Positions 1-41,130 of a DNA stretch of 64,000 bases are shown in pieces. This DNA is from Actinorugispora endophytica. GTDB taxonomy: Bacteria > Actinomycetota > Actinomycetes > Streptosporangiales > Streptosporangiaceae. The notes under the pieces were generated by a model. It was given only the letters and a program-made list of their open reading frames with translations, did no database searches and was not told the origin of the DNA. Position 1 is the first letter of the stretch; every line of letters starts with the position of its first letter. The stretch covers positions 186,001 to 250,000 of the forward strand of contig NZ_SNYN01000003.1 in NCBI RefSeq assembly GCF_004363075.1, read 5' to 3'. A program made the position numbers and the translations under genes.

Positions 1-1
1 G

Positions 2-619
2 GCGCTCGCCACCGTCGGCTCATGGGCGGCCCCCGGCGAGCTGCTCCGGAGCCTGGCGCAGCTGGAGACGGTGCTGCGCGGGGACGTCATCTCCAGGGCC
101 GCGGAGTCGCTGGCCGACTCGCCGCTGCACGTGCCCCCCTGCCTGAGGACCGACCTGGGGGCGGCCCGCGCCGAGGAGCTGGCCGATCGGTTCGCCGCGG
201 TCCCCGCCCGGGTCAGGGTGGCGCTGCTGCCCAGCGAAGCGGTGGAGTACGAGAGCGCGGTGGCGCGGCGGGGATCGGGGAACGTCGCCGAGCTGGTGCA
301 GGGCGAGAGCGACATGCCGGTCATCGTCTACCTGGTCGACCCCGGCGGCCGCGTCGTCTCCAGTGCCGCGAGCGGCCGGGTGTCCAACGACCGGTTCGGT
401 CTGCGCGGAGACGACCTGGCGGGCCTGGCCAACAGCGTCAGGGACCGCGACAGCGCCGACACCACCCTGACGAACCTGCTTCGGAGGCTGGGCGGCGGCG
501 ACGACGGCGGGAGCGCCGCCTTCGACCGGGCGGCCGAGTTCCTCATCTACGCGGCCCCCTTCCTCGCGCTCGTGGGCCTGGTGCTCGTCCTGCCCTCCCG
601 CCGCGCGGAGCGGGACTGA
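2..619 (+). CDS. C-terminal part of a putative membrane-anchored protein
   Basis: The reading frame is open to the left edge of the window, so the start lies outside and only the last 205 or so residues are visible. The end has a hydrophobic segment (about 18 residues, FLIYAAPFLALVGLVLVLP) followed by a short Arg-rich tail, the layout of a C-terminal membrane anchor with a cytoplasmic tail. The middle contains VYLVDPGGRVVSS, a beta-rich stretch that I cannot place in a family. No catalytic motif is visible. It is followed by an AT-rich gap and the roadblock-like genes on the same strand, but the 249-base gap argues against one operon. Function unknown. Confidence 0.6.
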   Translation, partial: ALATVGSWAAPGELLRSLAQLETVLRGDVISRAAESLADSPLHVPPCLRTDLGAARAEELADRFAAVPARVRVALLPSEAVEYESAVARRGSGNVAELVQGESDMPVIVYLVDPGGRVVSSAASGRVSNDRFGLRGDDLAGLANSVRDRDSADTTLTNLLRRLGGGDDGGSAAFDRAAEFLIYAAPFLALVGLVLVLPSRRAERD

Positions 620-868: not shown

Positions 869-1489
869 GTGTTCGCGATCGACGGCGACCTGAAGGCGAT
901 CCTGGAGATTCCCGGCGCGCGGAGCATATCCCTGCTGGATTCGGGCCGTGTCGTGGCCGAATTCGGCCACGACACCGCGTTTCCCCGGGAGGAGAACCGG
1001 GGAGCGGCAGGCGTCGTTCACGCGATCGCCGATAATCCGGCGTTCGTTTCGATGGAGATCGCCGGGGCCCTGGAGGACCTGGTGCTCACCACCCGGTACG
1101 AGTACCTGCTCGTGGCGGTCGTGCGGGTGCCGGGCCGCTCGCGCTGCCGGCTCCAGCTCCGGCTGGACCGGGGCGGCGGCAACCTCGCGCTCGGACGACA
1201 GGCGCTGCGTCGCCTGGCCGCGCGGCTGGGGGCGGACGCCGACGCGGGGCCGCCCGCCTGGACGGGGGGTCCGCTCCCCAGGCGGCGGTACGCGGTGGGC
1301 GGGGCCGACGGCGGCGCGGTGTCGCTCCGGCGGGCCCCGAACCCGGGCCGGCCGGCGCGAGGCACGGGAGGGGGGTGGTCCCCGCCGGACCGGGCCACCC
1401 TCGAACGAGTGCTCGGCGCGTTGAGGTCCCTGTGCGCGCCCCCGGCCGGACTGCCGGGGCGCGTCATGGTCAGGGCCGAGGCGACCTGA
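869..1489 (+). CDS. Roadblock/LC7-like protein, long form
   Basis: A 206-residue protein. The first 120 residues resemble the shorter protein encoded at 1597. Shared features are an N-terminal helix, a beta strand with SISLLDSGRVVAEFG, and the late strand-helix LDRGGGNLALGRQALRRLA, which matches LDRGRANLAMARHQLRGIE in the neighbour. These features fit the small roadblock/LC7 (MglB-like) fold, which usually binds small GTPases or forms dimers. The C-terminal 80 residues are Pro/Gly/Arg-rich and end with a predicted helix; they have no counterpart in the neighbour. GTG is used as the start because of the AAGGA five bases upstream. A perfect 28-base palindrome lies inside the gene. No GTPase gene is adjacent. 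Confidence 0.6.
   Translation: MFAIDGDLKAILEIPGARSISLLDSGRVVAEFGHDTAFPREENRGAAGVVHAIADNPAFVSMEIAGALEDLVLTTRYEYLLVAVVRVPGRSRCRLQLRLDRGGGNLALGRQALRRLAARLGADADAGPPAWTGGPLPRRRYAVGGADGGAVSLRRAPNPGRPARGTGGGWSPPDRATLERVLGALRSLCAPPAGLPGRVMVRAEAT
948..975. repeat. Perfect 28-base palindrome inside a coding region
   Basis: Positions 948-961 (GTGTCGTGGCCGAA) are followed immediately by their exact reverse complement to 975, with GAATTC at the centre. It encodes RVVAEFGHDT in the gene at 869. A gapless palindrome of this length is unlikely by chance, even at high GC. Confidence 0.85.
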
Positions 1490-1596: not shown

Positions 1597-1968
1597 ATGG
1601 CTGACCTGGACACCGGACTCAAGGAAATGATGGCGATCGGAGGCGCGATCGCCGCTTCTGTGGTCGACTACGGGAGCGGGATGGCCCTGGGCTCCCTGAC
1701 CACCGCCCAGAACCTCGACGTCACGGTCGCCTCGGCCGGGAACACCGAGGTGGTGCGGGCCAAGGTGCGCACCATCGACCAACTCGGCATCAACGACGCG
1801 ATCGAGGACATCCTCATCACGCTGGGGAAGCAGTACCACATCATCCGGCCGCTCAGCAGCCGGAAGGGGCAGGGGCTCTTCATCTACCTGGCGCTGGACC
1901 GGGGCCGCGCGAACCTGGCGATGGCCCGCCACCAGCTTCGCGGTATCGAGGAGGGCCTCGACATCTGA
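1597..1968 (+). CDS. Roadblock/LC7-domain protein
   Basis: A 123-residue protein that is essentially one roadblock/LC7-like domain. It has an N-terminal helix (LDTGLKEMMAIGGAIAASVVD), then strands around GMALGSLTT, then a helix and the strand GQGLFIYLALD, and ends in a helix (ANLAMARHQLRGIEEGL). In actinobacteria such proteins often act with small GTPases, as CvnB does in conservons, but no CvnA, CvnC or CvnD gene is present here. The ATG at 1597 is preceded by GGAAAAGGA with good spacing. The gene follows its larger relative by 107 bases, so the two are probably co-transcribed, and it ends just before a hairpin terminator. Confidence 0.72.
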   Translation: MADLDTGLKEMMAIGGAIAASVVDYGSGMALGSLTTAQNLDVTVASAGNTEVVRAKVRTIDQLGINDAIEDILITLGKQYHIIRPLSSRKGQGLFIYLALDRGRANLAMARHQLRGIEEGLDI

Positions 1969-1995: not shown

Positions 1996-2040
1996 GGACT
2001 CCCCCTCCGGCGCGGCCGGGGCAGGGGAGTCCTTGTTTTT
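1996..2040 (+). terminator. Rho-independent terminator after the roadblock-like pair
   Basis: GGACTCCCC (1996) pairs perfectly with GGGGAGTCC (ending 2032), and the stem is followed by TTGTTTTTT. It should end transcription of the 869-1968 unit and separates it from the large gene at 2207. Confidence 0.85.
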
Positions 2041-2206: not shown

Positions 2207-5200
2207 ATGAGGAGGTGGGAGCGCAGAGCGCTGCTCGTGGCGGTCACCGGGACGGTGGGCGCCGTGGTCCGGCGCGACGGAGCCGGGGCGCAGAACAGGG
2301 CGCTGCGTTCGGCGCTGACCGGCGCGGCCTTCGACGAGGTCCGCACCCTGACCGATCCGGGCCGGTCACGACTGCTGGAGGGACTGCGCTCCTTCTTCGC
2401 CGCGGCGGGACCGGCCGACGTCCTCGTCCTCGCGCTGAACGGGGGGATCGTCAAGACCGGGGAGGGCGCCCTGTACTTCCCGGCCGCGCCGGAGGGGCGC
2501 CGCCCCGGGCACGACGCGGTCGAACTGGCCGCCGTGGGCGCGGCGATCCGCGAGGGAGCGGCGCGCTCCACGGTCGTGCTGCTCGGCTGCCACTACAGCG
2601 GCTGGTCCGACGACGGCCCGGACGGGCGCACCCGGACGGTCCCCCGGCTCGACATCCGCCGGGTGTTCCCCGCGGACCGGTGCGTCGTCATCGCCGACAC
2701 CGCGGCCGACCGCGTCCACCGGGCCGATGGCACGGCCGTCTCCTTCGCCCTGAGCGTGGCGGACGCGCTCGGGGGCGCGGCGCCCGACCGCGACGGCGAC
2801 GGCTGGATCGACACCGCCGACCTGGACGAGTACCTGCGCTCCGCCTTCGACGGGACCGGCTGCCCGCCCGCGCTCATCACCGGAGCGGAGCCCGTACCCC
2901 TGGCGCGGGCCCGCGTGGAGGGGGCCGGGGCGCCGCCCGCGGACCCCGAGCCGCCCCCGACACCCCCCGTGGAGAGCGGCGCCGACGCGGACCTGGCCGC
3001 CGAGATCGAGGTTCTCACCGCCGGGCTGCTCTGGGAGTGCCGAACCGCGCGGGAGCTGCGCGACCGACTCCGGATCGAACTGCCGTCGACCGGGCTGGCC
3101 CCCGAACTCGCGGCCGAGACCGCCGCCGCGGTCGAACTCCTGCTGGTGGACGGCGACGACCCGGACCGGACCGAGCCCAGGGAGTTCCCCGGACGGGGGC
3201 CCGACCCCGAGACCGAGGTCGCGGCGTTCGGCGCCGCCGCCGCGGCGCTCGCCCTGCGGCTGCGGCGCGACCGCGAGGCCGACGCCGCCCACGAGACGGT
3301 CCGGGCGCCCGCGGCCCCGCCGGAGCGGGTCGAGCCGCTGGACGAGGGGCGGTGGCGTCTCCTCCTGGCCCACCACCGTGAAGCCCTGGTGAGGACCGAG
3401 GTGCGCACGCACCTGTTCGACCCCGCCGATCCGGACGGCTGGGTGGTCCTCCCGGCCCGAAGGGAGTCCCTGATCAGCGGTGCCGCCGACGCGGTGGCGG
3501 CCACCCGCGCCGTCCTGCGCCTGGCCGATGCCGCGGCCCGGTGCGGGCAGGCGCTGCGCTACGGCTACCCGATGGTCCTGGAGCGGGGGGTCTCCGAAAG
3601 CGGGGACGTCCCGTCCCAGCGGGCGGCCCCGCTGTTCGTCATGGACGTCGAGGTCCGCCCCGGGGACGACGAGCCGGTGCTGCGCGCGCTCGGGCCGCCG
3701 GAGGTCAACCCCGCGCTCGTGGCCGCGGACGCCGAACACGAGCCGCTGCGCGCCTGGTGGCGCGCCCAGCGCGGGAAGGGCGGCGTACGCGACCTCGCGG
3801 CCACGACCAGGCTGGTGCTGGCCCACCTGGGCATCGATCGGGTGGACGACATCGACACCCGCGCGCTGGGCGGCGGGTTCGACCGCGCCGGGACGCGGCC
3901 GGGAGCCCGCAACGTCGCCGTCGTGTTCCGCGCCGGAGCGGAGGCGGTCAGCCCGCTGCTCGACGACCTCGACGACACCTCCGACGACGGGTTGGACGTG
4001 GCGCGCGTCGGGGAGACGGCACTGGACTGCCTCACCGGTGGGCCCGGACCCGGGGCCGGGAGCGCCGCGCCGGTCCTGCCCGTCGCCGCGACCGCCCTGA
4101 GCGAGTCCCACCACCGGGTGCTGGAGGCGGTGATGAACCGCCGTCTCACGGTGGTGGCGGCCCCGCCCGGAACCGGGGCCGACGCGCTCGTGACGGCCGT
4201 CGCGCACACCGCGGTCGCGGCCGGCCAGAGTGTGCTCTACGCCGGGCCGGACCGGGCCGCCGCCGACGCCTTCGCCGCCCGCGCGGGCGCGGAGGCGGGC
4301 GTGGACCACCTGGTCGTGCGTACCGGCGGGCCCGAGCTGCTGGAGGCCGAGGCCGAGTTCCTGAAGGGGCTGCCGCACACCGGGGGGGAGGAGGATCCGG
4401 CGGGGTGGTGGGCGGAGGCGAGCCGGACCTGGGCCGCGTCGTGCGTCGCACGGCTGGCCATCGACGCGATCTCGCGGACCGAGCGCGATCTCGCGCTCCT
4501 GGCGGACGCGCGCGGCCGGATCGTCGCCGCGGGCTGGGACCCCGAGGCGCTGTTCCGCGGCAGAAGACCGCAGGACTGGCTGCGCCTGGTGGAACGGGGG
4601 AGCGGCCGGTTCGGGATCGACCGCTTCCGGCGCTCGGTCGTCCGGCGGCGCCTGGGGGCGCTCGTCACCCCCGAGGACCTGGCGCGGGTGTGCGAGATCG
4701 CCCGGGTCGAGGCGGCCTGGAGGGCCGCGGTCGACGTGTGGCGCCGCACGACCGCGCTGGAGGAGCTCTACGGGGACCTGGAGGAGGCCGCGGCCGCGCA
4801 CCGGGACACGGCGACCGGGTACCTGGCGGCGGTGGTGGAGCGTCGGCGGGCCGAGGGGTACCAGGCCCTCGCCGGCCGCCTGGAGTGCCTGAACTGGCGG
4901 TCGGAGGACTTTGCCTGGCCCGGGCTGGAGCAGTCGCTCACCGCGGTCCCGGCCCGGGCGGTGGAGGTGGGCCGGGCGCGCTGGCTGCCCCCGAGGGCGG
5001 GGATGTTCGACCTGGTGATCCTCGACGCGGCGGACCGGTGCGGGGTCGCGGCCGCGCTGCCGCTGCTGTACCGGGCACGGCGCGTGCTGGCCGTCGGCGA
5101 CCCGGCGCGCCGCGCGCCCGCCCGGGTCCCGGCCGAGGAGGCCGGCCGCGGCGCCCGTTCCGACGCGGTTCCGCGCTGGATCGCCGAGCGCGCGCTGGGC

Positions 5201-6160
5201 GGCCCCGGGACCTCGGCGTACCGCGCGCTGGCGCGGGCCGGGACCGAGGCGGGCGGGCGGGTGCTGTGGCTGGACGAGCACGACCGCTCCCACCCGCTGC
5301 TCGCGGAGACGGCCGACCGGTACGGCTACGGCGGCCGGTCGGCCGTGCTCACCGACACCCGCGCGCTGGCGTGCGCCGACCGGCCCGTGCGGTGGCACGA
5401 CGCGGTGGGCGAGTGCGAGCGGGAGGGCTGGGGCTCCTTCGTCAACCGGGAGGAGGCGTACCGGGCGGTGGGGGTGCTGGCGGAACTGGACGCGCGGCTG
5501 CCCGAGCGGATGGAGTTGGGCGTGGCCAGCCCGTTCTTCCGGCAGCGCGCGCTGCTGCGCCGGCTGGTGGACCGCAGGCTGCTGCGCGAGGTGCGGATCG
5601 AGGCGCCGCACGCGTTCGGTCCGCGCCCGTGCGACGTGCTCGTGGTGTCCCCCGTGCTGAGCGGGGCGGGGGCGAGGAGTCCGACGGCGCGGGACCTGTC
5701 CGGGCCCGAACGGTGGAACCCGGTCCTGACCGCGGCGGTCGGGCTGCTCGCCGTGGTGGGGGACCGCGGCTTCTGGCGCGGCGCCGGCGGGGTCCTGGCC
5801 ACCCTCGCGGACCTGGCGGAGGAGCCGCCCGGCGCCGATCCGGACCAGGCCCTGGCCGCCCTGGCCGCCGCGCTGCGGCGGGTGTCGGGCGGGGTCGACC
5901 TCGCCCCCGTGGTGCGGGGCCACCGCGTGGACCTGAGGGTGGACACCCCGGACGGTCCGGTCCTGGTCCTGGTGGACCGCACCGGCGACGGCCGCGGGCT
6001 GCGCCGGCTGCTCAAGCGCCTGCACCGGCTCCGGGAGGTGACGGGACTGCCGGTCCTGCGCGCCCCGGTCTGGCGCTGCCTGCACGCCCCCGAAGCCCTG
6101 GCCGAGGAGGTCGTGCTGGCCGGGGGGAGAGGCTCCGCCGCCGGCCCCGACGGTGCCTGA
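2207..6160 (+). CDS. Caspase-like, SF1 helicase-like and nuclease-like fusion with replaced catalytic residues
   Basis: A 1,317-residue protein with three modules. Residues 1-210 resemble bacterial caspase-like (C14) domains: RRALLVAV at the start, LALNGG where the usual SGHG motif lies, LLGCHYSG where LDCCxSG is expected, and an EF-hand-like loop DRDGDGWIDTADL. By my alignment the catalytic His is Gly and the catalytic Cys is His. Residues about 440-1180 look like an SF1 Dna2/NAM7-type helicase. Its Walker A reads APPGTGAD (Lys lost, about 652-659), motif II reads LDAAD (Glu lost, about 939), and motif VI reads NPVLTAA (Arg lost, about 1171). The last 80 residues resemble the MTES_1575/Vsr-like nuclease often joined to such helicases, but lack the expected acidic residue. 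An upstream TTG at 2114 is in frame; I chose the ATG at 2207 because the caspase fold begins at once after it. Confidence 0.7.
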   Translation: MRRWERRALLVAVTGTVGAVVRRDGAGAQNRALRSALTGAAFDEVRTLTDPGRSRLLEGLRSFFAAAGPADVLVLALNGGIVKTGEGALYFPAAPEGRRPGHDAVELAAVGAAIREGAARSTVVLLGCHYSGWSDDGPDGRTRTVPRLDIRRVFPADRCVVIADTAADRVHRADGTAVSFALSVADALGGAAPDRDGDGWIDTADLDEYLRSAFDGTGCPPALITGAEPVPLARARVEGAGAPPADPEPPPTPPVESGADADLAAEIEVLTAGLLWECRTARELRDRLRIELPSTGLAPELAAETAAAVELLLVDGDDPDRTEPREFPGRGPDPETEVAAFGAAAAALALRLRRDREADAAHETVRAPAAPPERVEPLDEGRWRLLLAHHREALVRTEVRTHLFDPADPDGWVVLPARRESLISGAADAVAATRAVLRLADAAARCGQALRYGYPMVLERGVSESGDVPSQRAAPLFVMDVEVRPGDDEPVLRALGPPEVNPALVAADAEHEPLRAWWRAQRGKGGVRDLAATTRLVLAHLGIDRVDDIDTRALGGGFDRAGTRPGARNVAVVFRAGAEAVSPLLDDLDDTSDDGLDVARVGETALDCLTGGPGPGAGSAAPVLPVAATALSESHHRVLEAVMNRRLTVVAAPPGTGADALVTAVAHTAVAAGQSVLYAGPDRAAADAFAARAGAEAGVDHLVVRTGGPELLEAEAEFLKGLPHTGGEEDPAGWWAEASRTWAASCVARLAIDAISRTERDLALLADARGRIVAAGWDPEALFRGRRPQDWLRLVERGSGRFGIDRFRRSVVRRRLGALVTPEDLARVCEIARVEAAWRAAVDVWRRTTALEELYGDLEEAAAAHRDTATGYLAAVVERRRAEGYQALAGRLECLNWRSEDFAWPGLEQSLTAVPARAVEVGRARWLPPRAGMFDLVILDAADRCGVAAALPLLYRARRVLAVGDPARRAPARVPAEEAGRGARSDAVPRWIAERALGGPGTSAYRALARAGTEAGGRVLWLDEHDRSHPLLAETADRYGYGGRSAVLTDTRALACADRPVRWHDAVGECEREGWGSFVNREEAYRAVGVLAELDARLPERMELGVASPFFRQRALLRRLVDRRLLREVRIEAPHAFGPRPCDVLVVSPVLSGAGARSPTARDLSGPERWNPVLTAAVGLLAVVGDRGFWRGAGGVLATLADLAEEPPGADPDQALAALAAALRRVSGGVDLAPVVRGHRVDLRVDTPDGPVLVLVDRTGDGRGLRRLLKRLHRLREVTGLPVLRAPVWRCLHAPEALAEEVVLAGGRGSAAGPDGA

Positions 6161-7796: not shown

Positions 7797-8681
7797 GTGC
7801 CCGAAGGCCACATGCTGCACCGGTTGGCGAACCACTTCGCCGAGTTCTACGGAGGCCGGCGGTTGCGCGTCTCCAGCCCCCAGGGCCGCTTCGCGGAGGG
7901 GGCGGCCCGGATCGACGGACGGGTCATGGCCGAGGCGGAGGCGTACGGCAAGCATCTGTTCCTGGGGTTCGGCCACGGCGAGTGGCTCCGGATCCACTTG
8001 GGCCTCTACGGGGCCCTGACCTTCGGCGACGCCGACGGCGAGTACGGTCTGGCGATGCCGCGAGAGGCGGTCCCGGGCGCCTCGCGGACACCCGCGCGCG
8101 ATGCCGACGGCTTTTTCGCGGCGCCGCCGCCCGTCGGCGCGGTGCGGGTCCGGCTCGTCGCGGCCGACAGCTGGGTCGACCTGCGCGGCCCCTCGGCCTG
8201 CGAGGTCCTGGACGAAGCGGGCAAGCGGGCGGTCCAGGACCGGCTGGGCCCCGACCCGCTGCGCGCGGACGCCGACCCCGAACGGGCGTGGCGGACGGTC
8301 GGCAGGTCCCGCAGCACGATCGCGGCGCTGCTGATGCGCCAGGACGTCATCGCGGGGGTCGGCAACATCTACCGCGCCGAGGCGCTGTTCCGGGCCGGTG
8401 TCGAACCGCACCGCGCCGGACGCGACCTGACCCGCGCCGAATGGGACGCGCTGTGGGCGGACCTGACCGGCCTGCTGGAGGCGGGCGTGGAGTGCGGCCG
8501 CATCGTCACCACCCGGCCCGAGGACCGGGGCGACCCCGCCGCCGACCCGGTTCCGCGCGAGGAGTCCTTCTACGTCTGCTACCGCACCGGTGAACCGTGC
8601 CGTCGGTGCGGCGCGCCGATCCGCTCGGAGCGGCTGGCGGCCCGGACCCTCTACTGGTGCCCGGGCTGCCAGGCGCGGTAG
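7797..8681 (+). CDS. nei: Fpg/Nei-family DNA glycosylase/AP lyase
   Basis: A 294-residue base-excision repair enzyme that removes oxidised bases and cuts the abasic site. After removal of Met the protein begins PEGH, with the catalytic Pro1 and Glu2. GVGNIYRAEALF is the helix-two-turn-helix signature. The C-terminal zinc finger has four Cys (CRRC ... CPGC) that insert into DNA. The start PEGHMLHR is typical of the actinobacterial Nei-like (Nei2) group rather than classical MutM, which begins PELPE. The GTG start is fixed by the need for Pro at position 2. It stands alone and converges on the phospholipase gene. Confidence 0.9.
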   Translation: MPEGHMLHRLANHFAEFYGGRRLRVSSPQGRFAEGAARIDGRVMAEAEAYGKHLFLGFGHGEWLRIHLGLYGALTFGDADGEYGLAMPREAVPGASRTPARDADGFFAAPPPVGAVRVRLVAADSWVDLRGPSACEVLDEAGKRAVQDRLGPDPLRADADPERAWRTVGRSRSTIAALLMRQDVIAGVGNIYRAEALFRAGVEPHRAGRDLTRAEWDALWADLTGLLEAGVECGRIVTTRPEDRGDPAADPVPREESFYVCYRTGEPCRRCGAPIRSERLAARTLYWCPGCQAR

Positions 8682-25990: not shown

Positions 25991-26129
25991 GGAGAACCTG
26001 GGGGCGAGAACGGGATCCCGTCCAGGCGGAGCCGTGAGCCCCGGTCCATCGTCACGGCTGTAGCCGGTCTTGTGGCGACTCGGCCTCGTGGCCGCCTACC
26101 GCCGGACTCTCCCTGTCCCTTGAGGCTCT

Positions 26130-26645
26130 TCAGGCTCCTTGCTCGAGGTCCATTGCGTCCAGCTTCTTCGGGTCCATGGGGGAGAGCGGCTTCGGAGTCA
26201 GGTACCTTTCTTTATTCCATTTCGGTATCCCGGTGACTCCGACTTCTATGTACCCGGCCCCTTCCATGCTGAACGAGTTCCCGCGTTCGTACATGAGGAT
26301 CAACGGGTCGAACGGACTCGGCAGGTTCGGGAGTGGGCCCTCTGACTCCCTCAAGGCTTCAAAATGCAAGGCCCAGGTGCATGTGCGGATCACCATGTGG
26401 AAAATCAGGGGAGGGAAGCGGTCTTCTATAGTGCGCACCAGTCTCGGGTCGGCTCGAACTGTTGGATCAATTCTCCGTGCAAAATCATCAAAAGGCCAGA
26501 CTGCGCCGATCCCGTCCGACCATAGGGCGGAGCGTCGTAGGTATTCGCTCATCAACCCCGCCTGAGAGGCTCTTCGCCCCTGACGTTCCTCCCAGTCGAG
26601 AGCCAGAAGCCGGTTTGCGAGATGCTCGGTCGAACCGTTTGGCAT
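26130..26645 (-). CDS. Hypothetical protein, possible immunity protein
   Basis: A 171-residue soluble protein that I do not recognise. Notable stretches are LLALDWEERQGRR, GIGAVWPFDDFARRIDP and PLILMYERGNSFSMEGAGYIE. It has lower GC and more AT-ending codons than the first 25 kb. Its place among YezG-like and Imm7 immunity genes on the same strand suggests, by context only, that it is also an immunity protein. No toxin gene is adjacent. Confidence 0.6.
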   Translation of the reverse strand: MPNGSTEHLANRLLALDWEERQGRRASQAGLMSEYLRRSALWSDGIGAVWPFDDFARRIDPTVRADPRLVRTIEDRFPPLIFHMVIRTCTWALHFEALRESEGPLPNLPSPFDPLILMYERGNSFSMEGAGYIEVGVTGIPKWNKERYLTPKPLSPMDPKKLDAMDLEQGA

Positions 26646-26952
26646 GGGGATTCCTTGACGGGTGTGGTGGGTCGGGAAAAAGATCGTCAGGATTCTGCCG
26701 GGCGACGTGAGGCGAGTATCGAAACAGAATTAATCTATCGTGATCCGCCTGTGCTCCAATCAAGAAAGAATTTCCGAGGACCCTTGGGTACTCGATGCTC
26801 ATCGGCGTGGCGGCTGGGGCATCGCGGAGGGCGGCGAGTTTCACCGTGGCGCATTAAGACCCCCTCCGTGAGCCTTATCTTCGGAACCGTTCGCCGGGTA
26901 CGGAGGAGAATCATCCCCGGTGCTGAGGACTGGACAACGAGTAGCGCAGCCA
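26646..26952. other. Low-GC gap with no confident gene
   Basis: I see no convincing gene here. A short minus-strand frame (MSIEYPRVLGNSFLIGAQAD, around 26740-26805) could be a gene fragment, but it lacks support. The region probably also carries the promoter for the gene at 26130-26645. Confidence 0.3.
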
Positions 26953-27432
26953 CTATTCGTTCTTCTCCTCCTGGAGCTTGCGGCGCAGCCAGTCGGGGAT
27001 GTGCTCGTCGTCCCGGGGGAAGTACTGGAGGTCCAGTTTGCGGCTTCCGGCTACTGGAGGGATTGTGAAATCCGGCTCGGTCCCGTAATCGATGCTGTAC
27101 TTCCCTGGGCGTGTGGCGATGTGATGGTCGGTAAGCCAGGTCCCCTTCCCTTGGCTGTACATTCCGTTGCGTAGTTCTCTCATCTTTTTTGAAACGTCCA
27201 TGGAGGGGCGTGTGCGATCTCTGGAGTCGCCGGGTCGGACTACTCCGAACTTCACGTTGGCGGTATCGACGAGGGCGTCGCATTGGAAATGTACCTTCTT
27301 CCATTCGTCAGGGGAGGCGCTGGCGAGAGAGATGCCGATTTCTTGCAAGACGACTTCCTGTTCAGTAACTGGCATTGGGATTCGGTTTCTCGTTTCCACT
27401 TCCTTCTGTGCATCCTGGGCAAAAATGCTCAA
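26953..27432 (-). CDS. YezG-like immunity protein A
   Basis: A 159-residue protein of the YezG-like antitoxin/immunity type. YezG in Bacillus neutralises the DNase toxin YeeF. Shared motifs with the copies at 27962, 32174 and 39254 are LRNGMYSQGKGTW, TRPGKYSIDYG, TIPPVAGSRKLDLQYFPRDDEHIPDWLRRKLQ. The N-terminal half is the most divergent of the set, as expected if it binds a different toxin. The upstream neighbour is an Imm7 gene, not a toxin, so this is an orphan immunity gene. Confidence 0.7.
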   Translation of the reverse strand: MSIFAQDAQKEVETRNRIPMPVTEQEVVLQEIGISLASASPDEWKKVHFQCDALVDTANVKFGVVRPGDSRDRTRPSMDVSKKMRELRNGMYSQGKGTWLTDHHIATRPGKYSIDYGTEPDFTIPPVAGSRKLDLQYFPRDDEHIPDWLRRKLQEEKNE

Positions 27433-27458
27433 CGAACCCTTTTTGTTCGATTTTGTGA

Positions 27459-27854
27459 CTATTCGAAATTTTCGATGACGGGGGTGATGGGAGAAAGAAA
27501 CGGGTCGCGGTGTTCGCTTATTTTTCCTCTTCTCATTATGAAGACTCTGAACTCGTTTCGATGGAGAGGGCCTTCGTCGTCGGATGTGTAGAGAACTCCG
27601 TACGACCCGGGTGCCACTCTTCCCGTGTGCTCAAGTAGAGAGAAGACTTCTTCGCCTTGGCTGGAATATCGGTTCAAGAATCCCCCTAGGTGAATCATCG
27701 GGAGTCCATTGACCCATCTGATGTCGACAAGTCCGCTGAACTCTCGCAAGACTTCGGTTCTTTTCTTGATCGAATCGAATGCCAGCGACAGGGAGCTGTC
27801 GTTGCCATCTCCTGGAGAGTCCTGAATAGTGATCCAAGCATGGTACTGGAACAT
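27459..27854 (-). CDS. Imm7-family immunity protein
   Basis: A 131-residue protein matching the Imm7 immunity family: MFQYHAWITIQ at the start, WVNGLPMIHLGGFLNR in the middle, PGSYGVLYTSDDEG and FLSPITPVIENFE at the end. It protects against a polymorphic toxin in related clusters. I chose the ATG at 27854 because GAGGAG lies nine bases upstream. It is 26 bases upstream of YezG-like gene A. No cognate toxin is seen. Confidence 0.8.
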   Translation of the reverse strand: MFQYHAWITIQDSPGDGNDSSLSLAFDSIKKRTEVLREFSGLVDIRWVNGLPMIHLGGFLNRYSSQGEEVFSLLEHTGRVAPGSYGVLYTSDDEGPLHRNEFRVFIMRRGKISEHRDPFLSPITPVIENFE

Positions 27855-27961
27855 GACTGAAATGCTCCTCAAATTTTTTGGGGGGTGTCATGTCAAGATT
27901 CTGAGGCTATCCACTTCCCGATCTCCGGTTCGCTTCATAGTCAGATGGGCGCCTTTCCTCG

Positions 27962-28417
27962 TCATTTCTCTGTTCTCTGGAGTTTCTGGCGCAGCCAGTC
28001 GGGGATGTGCTCGTCGTCCCGGGGGAAGTGCTGGAGGTCCAGCTTGTAGCTTCCGGCCACGGGTGGGATCGTGAAAGCCGGCTCCTCATCGTAGTTGTAG
28101 TCGACCCTGTAGTTACCCGGACGAGTGATCACATAGCGCGCGGAAAACCAGGTTCCTTTTCCGGGAATGTACATCCCCCTTCGGAGTTCCTTTAATTTTT
28201 TGAAGATTTCCAGAGGAGGGGAAAAGCGCTCCTTTGTCCCGTTCTCTCGAATGAATTCCGGGTCGGTGGTGGATCTTCCTATGACTGCACAGTGGGACAT
28301 GGTCAACTCTGACCAGTCCTCTGGGATTGAACTCAGGAGCATTTCTCCGATTTCACGAAGAAGTACATCCTGTTCAATTGAACTGATGGGACCTTTGATG
28401 GAGGGCAGCTACTTCAT
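27962..28417 (-). pseudogene. YezG-like immunity gene B with premature stop
   Basis: This copy is very close to copy D (39254-39718) from IEQD to the C-terminus. Its ATG at 28417 lies eight bases after the damaged toxin gene, but the third codon is TAG (28409-28411), so only MK would be made. The next ATG (MLLSSIPEDW, 28342) would give a 126-residue protein lacking about 25 N-terminal residues. The remaining part is intact through YFVEA-free core motifs LRRGMYIPGKGTW and PRDDEHIPDWLRQKLQ. It may still be made from the internal start, but I regard the gene as damaged. Confidence 0.65.
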
Positions 28418-28425
28418 CCTTTGGT

Positions 28426-29960
28426 TCAAGGTGTTACTTCGGGAATATTGTCGTAATTTTCAATCTGTTGCATTATGCCGTCTAGCCAGTATGTCACAAC
28501 AATTTCGTCCGGAGAATTTAAATCTCCACTGAAAATATTCTCGATCTTTACCCGCACTGTCTTCGGTGGGTTCTCTTTGAGGGCGTCGGCCCACTTTCTC
28601 TCCAGGATGTAGAAGTTGTCCTTGAAGGACCTCGGGGGCCCGCCGCCCGGAAGGTTCTTGTTGACGGTCTCAAGCATCGGTACCATGTTGACGCGTTCTC
28701 CGGAGCCGTAGAACCGCGTGCCGACGAGGTGTCCGCCGTTCCATCTGACATCTTCGTACAGCGTCGCCTCTCCCGGTTTCGGGGCCTGCCGTGCTGCTCC
28801 TCGAACTTTTCGATGACCGTTTTATGGTAGTCCTCGTAGTGGTCTCTTCCCTCTGTTCCGATCGGAGTCTGGTCGGGGCCGCGGAATCCTGTCCTGAGTT
28901 GGAGATTTCCCTCCATTGAAACGGTGCGCGATTTGCTGTCGGTTCGGTAGGTGTACCGGTCATCCCCCAGGTAGGTCATGTCGGGGCGGGGATGGCGCAG
29001 TTCGGGATTCCAGCTTCCGGGTTTCCCGGACTGGGTGCGGATCTCGATGACACCACCGTCAGTGTTGGTGACGTACAGGCCGCGCTTTCTGCCGGATTCG
29101 TCGAAGACCTCGTAGCGGGCGTCGGGGTCGAGGCCGCCGTTCTCCGCGAACAGCTGGTCGGTTTTAGGGGACAGGGAGGTTCCCTGTTCGATGCGGGTCC
29201 GGGCGACGTCGCCGTTCTCGTCGGTGACGTACACGCCGCGTTCCCGGCCCGAGGAGTCGACGACCCGGTACTGCGCCTTGGGTTCCAGGCCGCCGTTCTG
29301 CCCGAACACCTCCCCCGGCTTGGGGCTCTGGGGTCGTCCGCGTCGATGTCGACCGGCGGGGACAGTTCGGCGTCGTCGGGCCCCCAGGCGTCGTTGTCGC
29401 TCTGGCCGCTTCCCTGGACGGGCCCGATCCGCCGCTGCCGGAACCGGCGCCGCTGCCGGAGGAGACGTGGCCGTTCCCCGAACCGCCGGTACCGGAGCCC
29501 AGTACTCCGCTGCGGCTGGTGGGGTCGCCGCCTCCTCCCGGTCCGCTGGAGTTCCCGCTTCCGTCGACGGTCGTGACGCCGGGGGTGGGACCGTCCGCTT
29601 CCACGCGGGCGTCGGTTTCTCCGGCGTTGACGAGGGTGGGGTGGCGGTCGCCGCCCAGGGCGGCGGTGAGGCCGCCGGGTTGCTGTTCGGCCCGTTCGAT
29701 GTCGGCGTGGAGCTGGTTGACGAGGTCCTGGACCTACTGGGTGGTGGGCAGGTTCTGGGTTCCCCGGGCCGGGGTGTGGCCGCCGGTGTTTCCGGGGGTG
29801 GTGGGGGTGTCGGCGTGGTCGAGGGCGGTGTCGAGGCCGTAGACCTCTTCGCCGGTGTTGCGGATGGTGGAGCCGCCGGCGTGTCCGGCTCCGCTGAAGC
29901 CCTTGCCCGCCACGCCCGCCACCTCGCACCCGCGCCGCCCAGTGAATCGCGGATCACCCT
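28426..29960 (-). pseudogene. Decayed polymorphic toxin with DNA/RNA endonuclease end, copy 1
   Basis: The reading frame is broken several times. A TAG lies at 29734, after NLPTTQ and before VQDLVNQLHADIERAEQQ. Frame changes are needed near 29430, 29330 and 28787. Joined together, the product has a Gly/Ser-rich linker and two tandem repeats (NGGLEPKAQYRVVD and NGGLDPDARYEVFD). The endonuclease end follows: GGHLVGTRFYGSGERVNMVPM, ERKWADALKENPPKTV and IFSGDLNSPDEIVVTYW. This end resembles the Endonuclea_NS_2 type seen in YeeF-like toxins, which fits the YezG-like gene just downstream. Copy 2 has one more base at the 28787 site, showing a one-base loss here. Confidence 0.72.
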
Positions 29961-30083
29961 GGAGCCCTTGAGTGACAGGACGGGAGCGTGGTCGGTGTTC
30001 GCTGAGGCGTCGGAGAGTCGGGGAAGGGGCGCGACCTGCGCCTTCCCTCACGCTCCGTCGACGCGGGGCGTGAGGGAGCGCAC

Positions 30084-36800: not shown

Positions 36801-38103
36801 CCTGGAACGCCACGGCCGCTTGCGCGAGGTCCGCCAGATCGCCGAGGAGCTGCTCAGCATGCGCGGCTCCACGCTGGAGGTCTCCGACACCCGTCGGGCG
36901 CACGCCTTGGCGGCGGTGCGCGCGGTCGCCGAGTGCGAGGAGCGAGAGGACAGCCCGGGGTTCGCGCTGCGGCGTGTGCACGGCAGCGCCGGCGTGCTGG
37001 TCGCCCAGGTCATCGACGACGACCCCGGCGTCCCGGTCGAGGCCGACCTTCTGGACTACGCGGTGGCGCTGGGCCGGACGGCCGACCGGCTGGTGGATTT
37101 CGGCGACGACGCCCCGCTCCCCTCGCCGGGGGACGTGCGCGCCGTACTGCGGGAGGTCCCGGTCGAGGAGGGCATGGCGCCGCTGTCCGACGTCGACCTG
37201 GTGACGGTCGCCGCCGCCGCGTCGGAGCGGGCCAGGGTCACCGCCCGCCTGGAGCTGTACCCCGAGAGCCTCGGTTTCGACAGGGCGCTGGACCTGACCC
37301 AGGCGGTCAGCTACCTGGGTGATCCGGGGATCACGCCGCAGCAGATCCGGGACCGGGTCAAGGCGCGGTTCCCCGAGCTGGGAATCCCCGGCGAGGCCGA
37401 GCTGTGGGCCCTGCTGCACCGCAGGTACCCCAGGCTGGAGAGGCGCGCCGACCCCGACGGCGTCGAGTACTGGTCCCTGCCGGCCGTGCTCAGCCGAACC
37501 TCGACGGGCACGCTCACCCAACTCGGCGGAGGCCCCGCGGCGGCGCCCGCCGAGCAGCGGGCGGCCGGGCGGCGCCTCGACCAGTCCGCGCTCAGGGGCG
37601 GCTACCTGGCGGTCAAGACCTGGCTGGGCGACGCCGAGCGCGTCGCCGCGCGGCTGGGCGCGCGTCCGGACGTCGCCGCGATCGACGTCTCGGCGGAGTT
37701 CGTGTCGATTCTCACCGGGATGATCGAGGAGTTCGGCGGCCCGCCGTGGAGCATGGTGGTCGACGCGGACCGCCCCGGCGGTCCGGTCGAGTTCGCCGCC
37801 ATGGTGGCCGAGGCGTGCGAGAACCTGGGCGGCCGCGTCCGCTCGGCGGGTGCGGACCGCCCCGTGCTGCTGTACAACGCCACTCCGCTGGGCCGCTACC
37901 CGGCGGGCCGGACGCTGCTGCGGGCGCTGTCGCAGGAGGCCCGCGACAGCGGAGCCGCCCCGTACGGCCTGTGGGTCCTGTGCCCGATGCGCAGTCCCCA
38001 GGGCCCGGCCACCCTGGACGGCGCGTCCGCCGAGACCATCATCGAGTCCGAGCAGCTGGAGCTGCCGCGCGGCTTCGGCGCGGAGATGGCGCTGGCGGGG
38101 TGA
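33841..38103 (+). CDS. pglW: BREX type 2 kinase PglW
   Basis: A 1,420-residue multidomain protein of the phage growth limitation/BREX type 2 system. Residues about 15-110 form a NERD-type nuclease-like domain (ECDLFVV ... FLVEIKSHPG). A first kinase-like domain has HRALAARS near 336 in place of HRDLKPxN, so it looks inactive. A second kinase domain has the Gly loop VLGKGATS (523), FKVAV and HRDIKPANVG (635), with DFS for DFG, so it should be active. The C-terminal third has helix-hairpin-helix and helix-turn-helix-like parts (TQREVAERLGLDQVYVSQQL). GAGAGAGGG precedes the ATG. The rest of the system lies 8.2 kb downstream. Confidence 0.93.
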   Translation: MADRWWGQRSEYVWEQEALDHVKAQMPDRDPYRAWQCFSFTANSGQIRECDLFVVTSVGAFLVEIKSHPGRATNHGGTWFFDGEDRRRTIDNPLHLTRLKALQLKTQLEWAARKLKIRDYRSPFFEAAVFLSAPDLRCAFDEVQVQHVYGRDGLDGQTGLPGIWNGLLNKPRGKERPDPVFLRNVSRLMQEIGAQAIARDLKFGAYTLDSRAFGSGPTWTDYLGQHEVLKSKQSRVRVYHYGEAGSEAARESIKRAADREFRSLDGIAHEGIVKAEHYDVIDGRGPAIAFSHRRNWQRLDHFMQEKGADLDVSTQVEMVRQLAEAVNHAHRNRLFHRALAARSVWVEMDGSYPRLRIADWQVASRQGSAFSSGGHTTHQVTRHLGARVLADHVEAAAQAYLAPEFPAFDGDPRALDMFGLGALAYLVFSGRPPGQDRHEVSEQIREHGELTPASVNDDVTPIMDTLVREATRREPGERTRSPRDFLRRIDEVEEHLTRPDAVTDPLTAVRGQEVIDGWTVKSVLGKGATSRALLVERDGAERVFKVAVNQTGAVQKLSAEAAQLKELRNHRIVAIVDDGLLTVGEHTVLQLELAGEHTLADYLHIGGSLGVEELHRFGVHLFEVVDYLEDRKVFHRDIKPANVGVRERRKKGRALVLFDFSLAGADPADTRAGTPGYLDPFLELDEPKRVYDAAAERYALAVTLHEMASGELPVWHEDGVDLRFLPADLELPRLREESFPDQLRRPLTAFFKQALHRRPERRFDTLEGMRDAWEQVFRTPAERPVTTPDSAGAVPLDDEATRLRNAETATAETPLYLAGLTPNALDAATRVLRCETVGDLLTRPAADLRRVRGVSYQVRNELAAQVNRWRRRLEVAEPVDSSVTVRLPQGGGEEARNLAKRQANLDKVIRQFIPKSTEQNRAWVRVTRELLGLPEDAAARPVWPTQREVAERLGLDQVYVSQQLAKARRHWKKSDLLTAVRDDVVAILERHGRLREVRQIAEELLSMRGSTLEVSDTRRAHALAAVRAVAECEEREDSPGFALRRVHGSAGVLVAQVIDDDPGVPVEADLLDYAVALGRTADRLVDFGDDAPLPSPGDVRAVLREVPVEEGMAPLSDVDLVTVAAAASERARVTARLELYPESLGFDRALDLTQAVSYLGDPGITPQQIRDRVKARFPELGIPGEAELWALLHRRYPRLERRADPDGVEYWSLPAVLSRTSTGTLTQLGGGPAAAPAEQRAAGRRLDQSALRGGYLAVKTWLGDAERVAARLGARPDVAAIDVSAEFVSILTGMIEEFGGPPWSMVVDADRPGGPVEFAAMVAEACENLGGRVRSAGADRPVLLYNATPLGRYPAGRTLLRALSQEARDSGAAPYGLWVLCPMRSPQGPATLDGASAETIIESEQLELPRGFGAEMALAG

Positions 38104-38196
38104 TCGGGCGTCCGTGCGGACCCGGCGGTCAGACCCGGTCGGCCGGTTCCTCCCCGCACTCCTCGCGGCCGGGGGAGGGGCCGAGGGGAGGCTCTG

Positions 38197-38520
38197 TCAA
38201 GTGTTCTCCGTGGACTCCACGGAGAGGCTTGCGTCAATTATCTCCCGGAGTGCGTCGGCCCAGCTCCCGTCCGTGGCGTCTCCGGGCTCGTAGCCGCTCC
38301 CCCAGGTGTTTTCGAAGATGTCTTCGAGGGCCCTTTCGGACAGGCTCTCTGCCAGCAGTTTCTCTGCGTCGCTCCGAATTCCGGGAACAACTGGAGCCAG
38401 CTCCCGCTTGCTTCTCATGACCTCTTCGATGCTTCCTCCTTCGATCCCCCAGTCTTGGTGAAGATATGCTTCGACGAAATAAGTCAGGTGGCTGAACTCT
38501 TCTCTGAAGTCCCGGTCCAT
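38197..38520 (-). CDS. CdiI-like immunity protein
   Basis: A 107-residue acidic protein resembling the CdiI_2 type of contact-dependent inhibition immunity proteins: FSHLTYFVEAYLHQDWGIEGGSIEEVM near the N-terminus is the typical part. The rest is helical and ends AREIID-like with a short acidic tail. The region just upstream on the same strand carries only a fragment of a possible toxin, so it is an orphan. It is transcribed toward pglW. Confidence 0.7.
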   Translation of the reverse strand: MDRDFREEFSHLTYFVEAYLHQDWGIEGGSIEEVMRSKRELAPVVPGIRSDAEKLLAESLSERALEDIFENTWGSGYEPGDATDGSWADALREIIDASLSVESTENT

Positions 38521-39253
38521 GGTGGTTCCCTGTGTTCTCTGGTGCGCGGGTCTGCGGCCCGGCGTTCGGTGGCCGCAGCCGCTGAGGAGCCTCGGGCACG
38601 GGGTGTTTCGGGGTACGGGTACTTCACGTAGTCGGAGATCCCCGTCTCGGAGAGGAGGCCGGCGACGTCGGCCGCGTCGACGAACCGGCCGAACGTGTCG
38701 ACGTGGCCGTCGGTGGTGGCCGGCCCGGTGTACTCGGCGGGAGGGCGGCTCCTCGTCCTCTGCTCTCCCCGCTGGTTGTGCCGTTCGGTCCTCGGCGGCG
38801 GACTACGCGCGGGGGACGTCCGGATTTCGGGAGTCCCGTTGGCGGTCTTGACGCCGGCGTCCCTCGGAACGGACATATACCCGGGCGGGCTGCGGCGCGT
38901 CCCAACCGGCCCGTTCGGGTGGGTGGAGGAGCTGGTGGCCCTGGGGACGCCGGCTTTCCCGAAAGCCGTGAACGATCAACCGGGAGAGGGAAGACGCGAC
39001 CGCTGGTCAGGGACCAGAACGCGGTAGCCCCGTGTCCGCCGGAGTGCGACTCGTACCCCAGTGGCCACGGGGTTCTTTTCGTCAGGGCGGGGTCATGGGG
39101 GCCCGGAGGGGTCGGGCCGAAGCGTTTTGGCGCCCTTGTCCTACTCGGGATCACACGCGAACAGACCCGGACGACACGGCATCGTGCCGAGGCCCTGGGA
39201 ACGGAGTCTCCCAACCACCGGTCCGCATCGCAGCCAGAGGGGCGCGGGGCCCT
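38521..39253. other. Gene-poor region with a toxin-like fragment
   Basis: No complete gene is visible. On the minus strand, about 38600-38770 encodes PPAEYTGPATTDGHVDTFG and then FVDAADVAGLLSETGISDYVKYPYP. This may be the end of a lost toxin gene that belonged to the CdiI-like gene. From 38880 to 39253 I see nothing. Confidence 0.4.
38697..38760. repeat. 64-base duplication, copy 2
   Basis: Identical to 32032-32095. Here the minus-strand frame continues into VDTFGRFVDAADVAGLL, whereas copy 1 continues into VDGAGRFFGELRTR. Confidence 0.8.
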
Positions 39254-39718
39254 CTACTGCTGCTCACCCTCCGCTTCCTGGAGCTTGCGGCGCAGCCAGT
39301 CGGGGATGTGCTCGTCGTCGCGGGGGAAGTGCTGGAGGTCCAGCTTGTAGCTTCCGGCCACGGGGGGGATCGTGAAAGCCGGCTCCTCATCGTAGTTGTA
39401 GTCGATCCTGTAGTTGCCCGGACGTGTGATCACATAGCGCGCGGAAAACCAGGTCCCTTTCTTCGGGGTGTACATTCCGTTTCGAAGTTCGTCCAGTTTC
39501 TCGAGGATTTCGGAAGGCGGGAAGAAGGATTCTTTTGATCCATCGTTCCGGATGAATTCCGAATCGGTGGTGGATCTGTCCACAACTGCGTAGTGGGACA
39601 TCGTCACTTCTTCCCAGTCCTCTGGGGCTGAGCTCAGAAGCATTCCCCCGATTTCTTGGAGAAGTGCATCCTGTTCAATTTCGCTGATGGATCCTTCGGA
39701 GGAGTTCAATTGTCTCAT
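39254..39718 (-). CDS. YezG-like immunity protein D
   Basis: A 154-residue intact YezG-like protein, the closest relative of damaged copy B. It has ISEIEQDALLQEIGGMLLS, LRNGMYTPKKGTWFSARYVI and FPRDDEHIPDWLRRKLQEAE. Its ATG overlaps the TGA of the toxin gene (ATGA), the normal layout of a toxin-immunity pair with coupled translation. It should neutralise the endonuclease encoded just upstream. In Bacillus, YezG does this for YeeF. Confidence 0.78.
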   Translation of the reverse strand: MRQLNSSEGSISEIEQDALLQEIGGMLLSSAPEDWEEVTMSHYAVVDRSTTDSEFIRNDGSKESFFPPSEILEKLDELRNGMYTPKKGTWFSARYVITRPGNYRIDYNYDEEPAFTIPPVAGSYKLDLQHFPRDDEHIPDWLRRKLQEAEGEQQ

Positions 39719-40544
39719 CCTTTGGTTCGGGGTGCCGTCTTGGGAATATTACTGTAGTGCTCTATTCCTTGGGTGACGCCGTCTGTCCAATATTCTACGA
39801 TGATCCTGTCCGGCGAATTTGAATCTCCACTGAAAATATTATCGATCTTTATCCGCACTGTCTTCGGTGGGTTATCTTTGAGGGCGTCGGCCCATTTTCT
39901 CTCCAGGAGGTAGGAGTTGTCCTTGAACGTTCTTTGCGGTCCGCCGCCCCGAAGGTTCCTGTTGACGGTCTCAAGCATCGGCACCATGTTGACGCGTCCT
40001 CCGGAGCCGTAGAACCGCGTGCCGACGAGGTGTCCGCCGTTCCATCTGACATCTTCGTACAGCGTCGCCTCTCCCGGTTTCGGGGGTCTGCCGTGCTGCT
40101 CCTCGAACTTTTCGATGACCGCTTTATGGTCGTCCTCGTAGTGGTCTCTTCCCTCTGTCCTGATCGGAGTCTGGTCGGGCCTCGGAATCCTGTCCTGAGT
40201 TGGAGGGACCCCTCCATTGAAACGGTGCGGGATTTGCTGTCGGTCCGGTAGGTGTACCGGTCATCCCCCAGGTAGGTCATGTCGGGGCGGGGGTGGCGCA
40301 GTTCGGGATTCCAGCTTTTGGGTTTGCCGGACTGGGTGCGGATCTCGATGACACCACCGTCTGTGTCGGTGACGTACAGGCCGCGTTTTCTGCGCCCGGT
40401 GCCGGAGGCCGGATCGACTCGCACACCGCCGTGCCTCCGAGCCTGGAGCGCGGTGATGTCGGCCTGCGGCTTTCGGCGGACCGCTCCGGGGACGGCGAGC
40501 ATCCGCGCCGCAGCGATCTCCTGGGAGGAGCGCTCCTCAGCCAA
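39715..40544 (-). pseudogene. Truncated polymorphic endonuclease toxin with frameshift, copy 2
   Basis: Relative to copy 1, one base is missing near 40185 (TCGGGCCTCGG against TCGGGGCCGCGG), which breaks the frame between LQLRTGF and PDQTPIRTEGRDHYEDDH. The 3' frame is open over the whole catalytic end: GGHLVGTRFYGSGGRVNMVPM, NRNLRGGGPQRTF, ERKWADALKDNPPKTV and IFSGDSNSPDRI. The 5' part keeps only one of the two tandem repeats and is joined to an unrelated 45-residue start (AEERSSQEIAAARMLAVPG) overlapping the upstream immunity-like gene. So it is N-terminally truncated and out of frame. Confidence 0.7.
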
Positions 40545-41130
40545 GGGTTTCCAGCCCGTCGTACTGGTCGTAGTTGAGGCGGCTCTCCCGTTCCTCCTGG
40601 CTCATGTCCTGTTTCCTGGGCGCCCGCCACCACCAGTGCGAGTCCGGGAGCCAGGAGGGGATGTCCTCCTCCGGAACGGGAGGGGCCTCGTCAGAGACCT
40701 CCCTGAGAGTCTCGTCAATCTCTTCGAGTTCTTCACGGTCGGGTTCAGGAGCTACTTGGTCCCAGGGGGCGAACGCGTCGTCGAGGATCTGAAGCACCGA
40801 GCGTCGCCGGCACGCCTCCTGGAAACCGTCGAGACGGCCCCGTTCCGCGTACACCATGCACTCGAAGCTGTACAGACTGAGCCCGGATGGGTTCTTGCCT
40901 TTTTTGAGCAGTGTGACGACCTGATCCTTGAAGGCGCGCATTTCCTCCGTTTTTATCGGGGTGTCGAGAGAGGCCTGGTAGAGGTGTGCGAGCCTTTCCA
41001 GCGCTGACTGCGCGAACGAACTGTCCCCACCGGCATCCGAAGCGCCCGCATCGAGTAGGCGGATAACATCCCGCATCAGCTCAGTCGTTCCGGGTGCTCG
41101 ATCCTGGGAGGCGTTTGTTCGACTTCTCAC
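40537..41130 (-). CDS. Putative immunity protein for the 41127-42302 toxin-like protein
   Basis: A 197-residue soluble, acidic protein with no family I can name. The N-terminal half is helical (LMRDVIRLLDAGASDAGG, SALERLAHLYQAS). The C-terminal half is Glu-rich and contains EEDIPSWLPDSHWWW. It starts with a GTG that overlaps the stop of the toxin-like gene (GTGA). This coupling, and the order toxin then partner, is the main reason to call it an immunity protein. Confidence 0.55.
   Translation of the reverse strand: MRSRTNASQDRAPGTTELMRDVIRLLDAGASDAGGDSSFAQSALERLAHLYQASLDTPIKTEEMRAFKDQVVTLLKKGKNPSGLSLYSFECMVYAERGRLDGFQEACRRRSVLQILDDAFAPWDQVAPEPDREELEEIDETLREVSDEAPPVPEEDIPSWLPDSHWWWRAPRKQDMSQEERESRLNYDQYDGLETLG

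What the first reader, a model, noticed from the sequence alone, without database searches (positions are those of the whole stretch)
2207..6160. An intact three-module fusion in which every catalytic centre looks disabled
One long open frame joins a caspase-like domain, an SF1 helicase-like domain and a Vsr/MTES_1575-like nuclease domain. Read against the family motifs, the caspase His and Cys are Gly and His (LALNGG, LLGCHYSG). The helicase lacks the Walker A Lys (GTGAD), the motif II Glu (LDAAD) and the motif VI Arg (NPVLTAA), and the nuclease lacks its central acidic residue. Yet the 1,317-codon frame has no stop and keeps all the scaffold motifs and an EF-hand-like loop. This suggests selection for a non-catalytic role, such as a sensor, scaffold or decoy in a conflict system. 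I know of caspase-helicase fusions in bacteria, but not of one where all parts are inactive.
Basis: partly seen in the sequence, partly recalled or inferred. Interest (0 to 1): 0.75.

Follow-up and report, generated by a model that had tools for sequence, protein, structure and literature searches.

The report
Conserved dead caspase-helicase fusion protein
This actinobacterial gene encodes a large protein that has lost the catalytic residues of its protease and helicase parts, yet close to fifty related bacteria carry an intact copy, nearly always at the same chromosomal place, so evolution appears to have turned an old defence enzyme into a non-catalytic housekeeping protein.

Summary
The frame, coordinates and motif losses are real. 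Window 2207-6160 is an intact 1,317-codon gene: paracaspase-fold domain (MALT1 E=2e-8), UPF1/senataxin-type SF1 helicase fold (pLDDT 90, E=8e-21) and a degenerate PD-(D/E)XK-like tail. Comparison with 54 relatives changes the interpretation. Relatives with intact motifs are the known EACC1-caspase conflict systems. The window protein belongs to a single-origin clade (100/100 support; 46 loci, about nine genera, Nocardiopsis/Thermobifida group). In all 46 the Walker-A lysine is gone. All seven that keep the caspase domain have lost both catalytic His and Cys. EACC1 was not found at these loci, nor anywhere in the window genome. The gene sits at a fixed place, followed by an Fpg/Nei glycosylase in 44/46. 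Selection is purifying (omega about 0.11 in every domain; neutral simulation 0.52-0.79). Seventeen residues are newly fixed, ten in the helical arm. The nuclease Glu loss is older (missing in active relatives too), while two Asp are invariant. So this is a domesticated pseudoenzyme, probably a protein-binding scaffold. It is not decaying, and it cannot be a decoy for an active EACC1-type paralogue in its own genome, where none was found. Partner and function remain untested.

The parts
2207..6160 (+). Pseudo-caspase / pseudo-helicase / nuclease-like fusion gene, 1,317 aa
   Evidence: open frame; single copy in genome; 46-member clade
2207..2956 (+). Paracaspase-like domain, aa 1-250, catalytic His and Cys replaced
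   Evidence: NCBIfam NF047832 E=7.7e-11; model pLDDT 82, MALT1 E=2e-8; alignment A1
2444..2446 (+). Catalytic His position, now Gly80
2591..2593 (+). Catalytic Cys position, now His129
2786..2821 (+). EF-hand-like loop DRDGDGWIDTAD, aa 194-205
   Evidence: conserved 7/7 in pseudocaspases; caspase profile also matches calmodulin loops, whole-sequence E=2.7e-4
3332..4066 (+). Pre-helicase domain aa 376-620, conserved between active and inactive relatives
   Evidence: median retention 0.98 of residues invariant in active relatives
4163..4183 (+). Degenerate Walker A PPGTGAD (Lys to Ala658)
4397..4897 (+). Helical arm inserted in the helicase region, aa 731-897; carries 10 of 17 newly fixed residues
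5018..5041 (+). Degenerate motif II ILDAADRC
5717..5743 (+). Degenerate motif VI NPVLTAAVG (Arg to Ala1176)
   Evidence: Arg kept in 40/46 of the clade
5819..6121 (+). C-terminal PD-(D/E)XK-like domain aa 1205-1305 with invariant Asp1242 and Asp1257, ExD Glu absent
2018..2033 (+). Terminator-like hairpin between the small upstream gene and the fusion gene
   Evidence: 1 found, 0.5 expected by chance; weak
1597..1968 (+). Small roadblock/LC7-like gene (RB2), linked to the fusion in a few clade members but widespread without it
   Evidence: no Pfam/NCBIfam match, so the name is by eye
869..1489 (+). Paralogous small gene (RB1), linked in five clade members
7797..8681 (+). Fpg/Nei-type DNA glycosylase, conserved downstream neighbour (44 of 46 loci, same strand)

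Best explanation
The gene is a vertically inherited pseudoenzyme of the Nocardiopsis/Thermobifida group, derived once from an EACC1-linked caspase - SF1 (UPF1-like) helicase - PD-(D/E)XK-like conflict effector. Inferred order: the nuclease-like tail lost its Glu before the split; the common ancestor of the clade lost caspase and ATPase chemistry and the EACC1 partner, and became fixed between a PucR-type regulator and an Fpg/Nei glycosylase; one branch then deleted the dead caspase, while the window/Thermobifida branch kept it with its EF-hand-like loop and also lost motif VI Arg. The shown part is a conserved fold without its catalytic residues, under purifying selection. The inferred part is how it works: not by ATP-driven movement, since ATP-binding motifs and the nucleic-acid-contact motifs Ia, Ic and V are eroded together, but as a scaffold. 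In that model the helical arm is the new docking surface, and in this branch the pseudocaspase with its EF-hand-like loop is a second, possibly Ca2+-responsive, docking module. The partner is unknown; the best positional candidate is the neighbouring Fpg/Nei glycosylase.
For: Inactive clade is monophyletic with 100/100 support and nested within active relatives, after catalytic columns were removed. Walker-A Lys lost 46/46; caspase His and Cys lost 7/7 with different replacement residues. Synteny: Fpg 44/46, PucR 36/46 upstream on the same strand, 0/9 in active copies, which have EACC1 instead. Near-universal in the genus with most sampled species. omega 0.106/0.110/0.113 for caspase/helicase/tail in the window branch and 0.09-0.11 in other branches, against 0.52-0.79 and frequent stops in neutral simulations. 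Seventeen newly fixed columns, ten in the 731-897 arm, expected 3.1, p=1.7e-4. High-confidence folds.
Against: No partner, phenotype or expression datum. Motif VI Arg is kept in 40/46, so a residual nucleotide-binding role cannot be excluded for other branches. Two invariant Asp in the tail leave a metal-dependent activity possible. omega is about 1.4-2 times that of Fpg, so constraint is moderate. Conserved synteny may reflect shared ancestry rather than shared function. In the window a 1-phosphofructokinase gene lies between the fusion and Fpg.
Confidence: 0.62

Rival explanations
1. Decoy or dominant-negative regulator within a conflict system: the dead copy binds invader proteins, or the active EACC1-caspase effector, and blocks them.
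For: Several genomes carry both an active EACC1 copy and the inactive copy (G021, G045, G192, G196, G198, G185, G190). Kaur et al. 2020 (PMC7159879) report inactive enzyme versions as effectors in related systems and propose decoys.
Against: The window genome and the six other pseudocaspase-bearing genomes tested have no EACC1 homologue at E<=0.01, and the window genome has no other EACC1-type caspase. The gene is core and syntenic, not patchy; no match in phage or plasmid collections.
Confidence: 0.15
2. Hidden activity: the tail is a working nuclease using Asp1242/Asp1257, or another active site, and the rest is a targeting module.
For: Asp1242 and Asp1257 invariant 46/46 and in 8/9 active relatives; secondary-structure order helix-strand-strand-strand-helix-strand in the model.
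Against: The ExD Glu present in an outgroup (VEIDG, L153) is absent in the caspase-fused relatives; no Lys follows in the ExK position; profile support for MTES_1575 is weak.
Confidence: 0.1
3. Nucleic-acid clamp: a pseudohelicase that still binds DNA or RNA without ATP hydrolysis, perhaps assisting the neighbouring glycosylase.
For: Precedent: Deinococcus radiodurans PriA pseudohelicase keeps DNA binding (PMC4504706); Fpg/Nei neighbour 44/46.
Against: Residues of motifs Ia, Ic and V, which contact nucleic acid in UPF1-like helicases (general knowledge), are lost too (S680, N682, N683, T920, T1133, Q1138).
Confidence: 0.11
4. A decaying pseudogene that has simply not yet acquired a stop.
For: Loss of many catalytic residues, each replaced variously.
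Against: 46 intact long frames; omega about 0.1 in all domains; 44-45% of differences at codon position 3 even at about 50% protein identity; newly fixed residues.
Confidence: 0.02

Closest known systems
EACC1-caspase two-gene conflict system (Kaur et al. 2020, PMC7159879, System 4)
   Same: N-terminal caspase of the EACC1-associated family fused to a variable C-terminal effector module; the clade's nearest relatives are such systems with an SF1 helicase module.
   Different: No EACC1 gene; caspase dyad and ATPase motifs lost; fixed core chromosomal locus; caspase deleted in most members.
UPF1/IGHMBP2/senataxin family SF1 helicases
   Same: Fold of the helicase core.
   Different: Walker-A Lys, motif II Glu, motif III Gln, motif V and (window branch) motif VI Arg lost.
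Deinococcus radiodurans PriA pseudohelicase (PMC4504706)
   Same: A bacterial helicase fold conserved after loss of ATP hydrolysis.
   Different: PriA is a replication-restart protein with shown DNA binding; the present protein also lost its protease site and nucleic-acid-contact motifs.
c-FLIP, an animal caspase-like protein without a working active site (general knowledge; its inactive caspase domain is noted in PMC8195603)
   Same: Conserved dead caspase domain kept for binding.
   Different: No homology beyond the caspase fold; c-FLIP regulates active caspases, whereas no other EACC1-type caspase was found in this genome.

Membership tests
EACC1-caspase conflict system | EACC1 gene immediately 5' | tested here: not met
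   No EACC1 hit next to any inactive locus; none in the window genome at E<=0.01. EACC1 abuts the active copies L028, L031, L034, L036, L136, L138.
EACC1-caspase conflict system | N-terminal caspase domain of the EACC1-associated type | tested here: inconclusive
   Homologous (E=7.7e-11) but 41.9 bits against a curated cut-off of 140; fold confirmed.
EACC1-caspase conflict system | Catalytic His/Cys for autoproteolytic activation | tested here: not met
   Gly80 and His129.
EACC1-caspase conflict system | Patchy distribution with variable effector | tested here: not met
   Core and syntenic.
UPF1-like SF1B helicase | Fold of the helicase core | tested here: met
UPF1-like SF1B helicase | Walker A Lys and DE of motif II (ATP hydrolysis) | tested here: not met
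Vsr/MTES_1575 nuclease | alpha-beta-beta-beta-alpha-beta core and family profile match | tested here: inconclusive
   Secondary-structure order fits; Pfam MTES_1575 only E=0.057 in a paralogue, none in the window protein.
Vsr/MTES_1575 nuclease | Acidic ExD catalytic pair | tested here: not met
   Glu absent; Asp1257 kept.
Pseudoenzyme under selection | Shared loss of catalytic residues, intact frame, omega well below neutral | tested here: met
Pseudoenzyme under selection | Absence of enzymatic activity in vitro | not testable with these tools
   needs purified protein

The most novel reading that the evidence does not exclude
A whole conflict-system effector has been domesticated as a core, all-non-catalytic protein: protease and motor were switched off in one ancestor, the activating partner was dropped, and the helical arm of the dead helicase gained a new conserved interaction surface. 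Such a lineage, with active counterparts still present in some of the same genomes, would be a bacterial model for how immune enzymes become regulators.
Probability: 0.5. Interest if true: 0.75.

Novelty: new variant of a known kind. Interest (0 to 1): 0.6.

Why it matters
Inactive domains in bacterial conflict systems are usually seen as scattered variants. Here a whole multi-domain effector appears to have lost two catalytic centres in one common ancestor and then been kept in a fixed genomic place across about nine genera, including the workable organism Thermobifida fusca. That makes the question of what dead immune enzymes do directly testable, with active paralogues in some relatives as natural controls.

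Tried and rejected
Pfam alone found only AAA fragments; neither the caspase nor the nuclease scored in Pfam. A naive NG86 dN/dS was misleading in this >70% GC genome (median 0.80 across largely saturated pairs) and was replaced by a codon model with F3X4 plus neutral simulations. A first synteny count used wrong minus-strand coordinates and was redone. An attempt to fix omega at 1 for a likelihood-ratio test failed in IQ-TREE. Functional linkage to the two small roadblock-like genes was considered and down-weighted: RB2 relatives occur in 219 of 343 family genomes, adjacent linkage holds in few clade members, and a terminator-like site lies between. The same-genome decoy idea was rejected for this genome. 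The whole-family search with the full protein failed twice and was done with the 431-aa C-terminal part, so distant or N-terminal-only relatives may be missed. Literature searches found no description of this inactive family, but only open-licence papers could be searched.
Full report
WHAT IS THERE. The frame at 2207-6160 is open for 1,317 codons and is the only homologue in its 5.25-Mb genome. GC by codon position over the slightly longer mechanical frame is 82/58/95%, as expected for a real gene in this high-GC genome. Residues 1-250 form a caspase-fold domain: NCBIfam caspase_w_EACC1 E=7.7e-11 but below its cut-off, model pLDDT 82 with MALT1 as best solved match, E=2e-8. Residues 376-1200 form a UPF1/IGHMBP2/senataxin-type helicase core with a pre-helicase domain and a long helical arm; model of residues 362-1317 pLDDT 89.6, pTM 0.91, best match senataxin E=7.5e-21. 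Residues 1205-1305 form a small domain whose secondary-structure order fits PD-(D/E)XK nucleases; the MTES_1575 profile reaches only E=0.057, and only in an active paralogue.

CATALYTIC RESIDUES. Caspase His is Gly80 and Cys is His129. Walker-A Lys is Ala658, motif II Glu is Ala941, motif III Gln is Arg968, the motif V Q/G/E residues are gone and motif VI Arg is Ala1176; motif IV Arg remains. No substitute Lys or Arg lies near the P-loop, and the whole protein has four Lys. The nuclease part needs correction: the Glu of ExD is absent in the caspase-fused relatives, including those with intact helicase and caspase, and is present (VEIDG) in one outgroup; Asp1242 and Asp1257 are invariant in 46/46 inactive and 8/9 active copies. 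It is therefore an older, family-wide change, and activity of this domain is undecided.

RELATIVES. In 343 genomes of the family, 68 match; wider flanks were fetched for 54 relatives. Together with the window they fall in two groups. Group 1 (nine loci) has GTGKS, DEASQC and an intact motif VI Arg; eight of the nine have the SGH/DCC caspase dyad, and an EACC1 gene abuts or overlaps the fusion in most. This is the EACC1-caspase conflict system of Kaur et al. 2020 (PMC7159879, read). Group 2, 46 loci including the window, lacks the Walker-A Lys in every member (replaced by A, V, L, G, I, M or D). Only seven of group 2 keep the caspase domain (window, Nocardiopsis ansamitocini, four Thermobifida-type genomes, Marinitenerispora); in all seven both dyad residues are gone, with differing replacements. 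In the other 39 no caspase homology was detected. A tree built without the catalytic columns makes group 2 one clade with 100/100 support, nested among active relatives.

GENOMIC CONTEXT. In group 2 an Fpg/Nei glycosylase follows on the same strand in 44/46 loci, usually within 80-300 bp, and a PucR-type regulator precedes on the same strand in 36/46; group 1 shows neither (domain calls). In the window a 1-phosphofructokinase gene on the other strand lies between the fusion and Fpg. The gene is near-universal in the most densely sampled genus and has no match in phage or plasmid collections. The window genome has no other EACC1-type caspase and no detectable EACC1 gene. Two small roadblock-like genes and an apparently membrane-anchored protein gene lie upstream in the window, but each is conserved in only about four or five of the clade's loci, and RB2 relatives are common without the fusion.

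SELECTION. Under GY+F3X4, omega in the window branch is 0.106 (caspase), 0.110 (helicase) and 0.113 (tail); Nocardiopsis and Streptomonospora-type sets give 0.09-0.11; Fpg controls 0.05-0.08; the active helicase 0.04. Frame-free neutral simulations give 0.52-0.79 and usually several stops per copy. The dead caspase is thus as constrained as the rest. Among residues invariant in active relatives, non-catalytic helicase residues are retained at a median of 0.80, while most catalytic ones are at 0-0.15 (motif VI Arg and Thr are the exceptions). Seventeen columns have become newly fixed in group 2; ten lie in the helical arm 731-897 (expected 3.1, p=1.7e-4). This is the pattern of a new function, not of decay. 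The arm boundaries were taken from the structure model; the test is simple and ignores phylogenetic dependence.

MECHANISM. Shown: a conserved helicase fold without its ATPase residues, a dead caspase with a conserved EF-hand-like loop in one branch, purifying selection, and newly fixed residues in the arm. Inferred: the protein works as a scaffold through the arm, with the pseudocaspase as an extra docking and perhaps calcium-sensing module. Nucleic-acid clamping is less likely because motif Ia, Ic and V residues are eroded together with the ATP site. Fpg/Nei is the best positional candidate for a partner, with no direct evidence.

VERDICT. The finding is not a singular oddity but a single-origin, core pseudoenzyme family derived from a known kind of conflict effector.

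Noticed in passing
window 1597-1968 (RB2) and 869-1489 (RB1): Two small paralogous roadblock/LC7-like genes without Pfam or NCBIfam match; RB2 relatives are found in 219 of 343 family genomes, listed matches mostly 65-80% identical, so a widespread family without a profile.
   Followed up: partly
window 1-619 (start lies upstream of the window; L038 10499-11620): Gene for a protein with an apparent N-terminal signal and C-terminal membrane segment, without known domain, conserved next to the fusion gene in Thermobifida-type genomes.
   Followed up: partly
L153: Outgroup helicase-nuclease protein of an uncultured bacterium keeps ExDG in the tail, showing the probable ancestral motif.
   Followed up: yes
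loci L028, L032, L136, L137, L163, L164, L166: Active EACC1-type caspase-helicase copies coexist with the inactive core copy in the same genomes, a natural control pair.
   Followed up: partly
window 26001-30000 and 38001-42000: Stretches of clearly lower GC (56-63% against about 74%) that may be acquired DNA; not examined.
   Followed up: no
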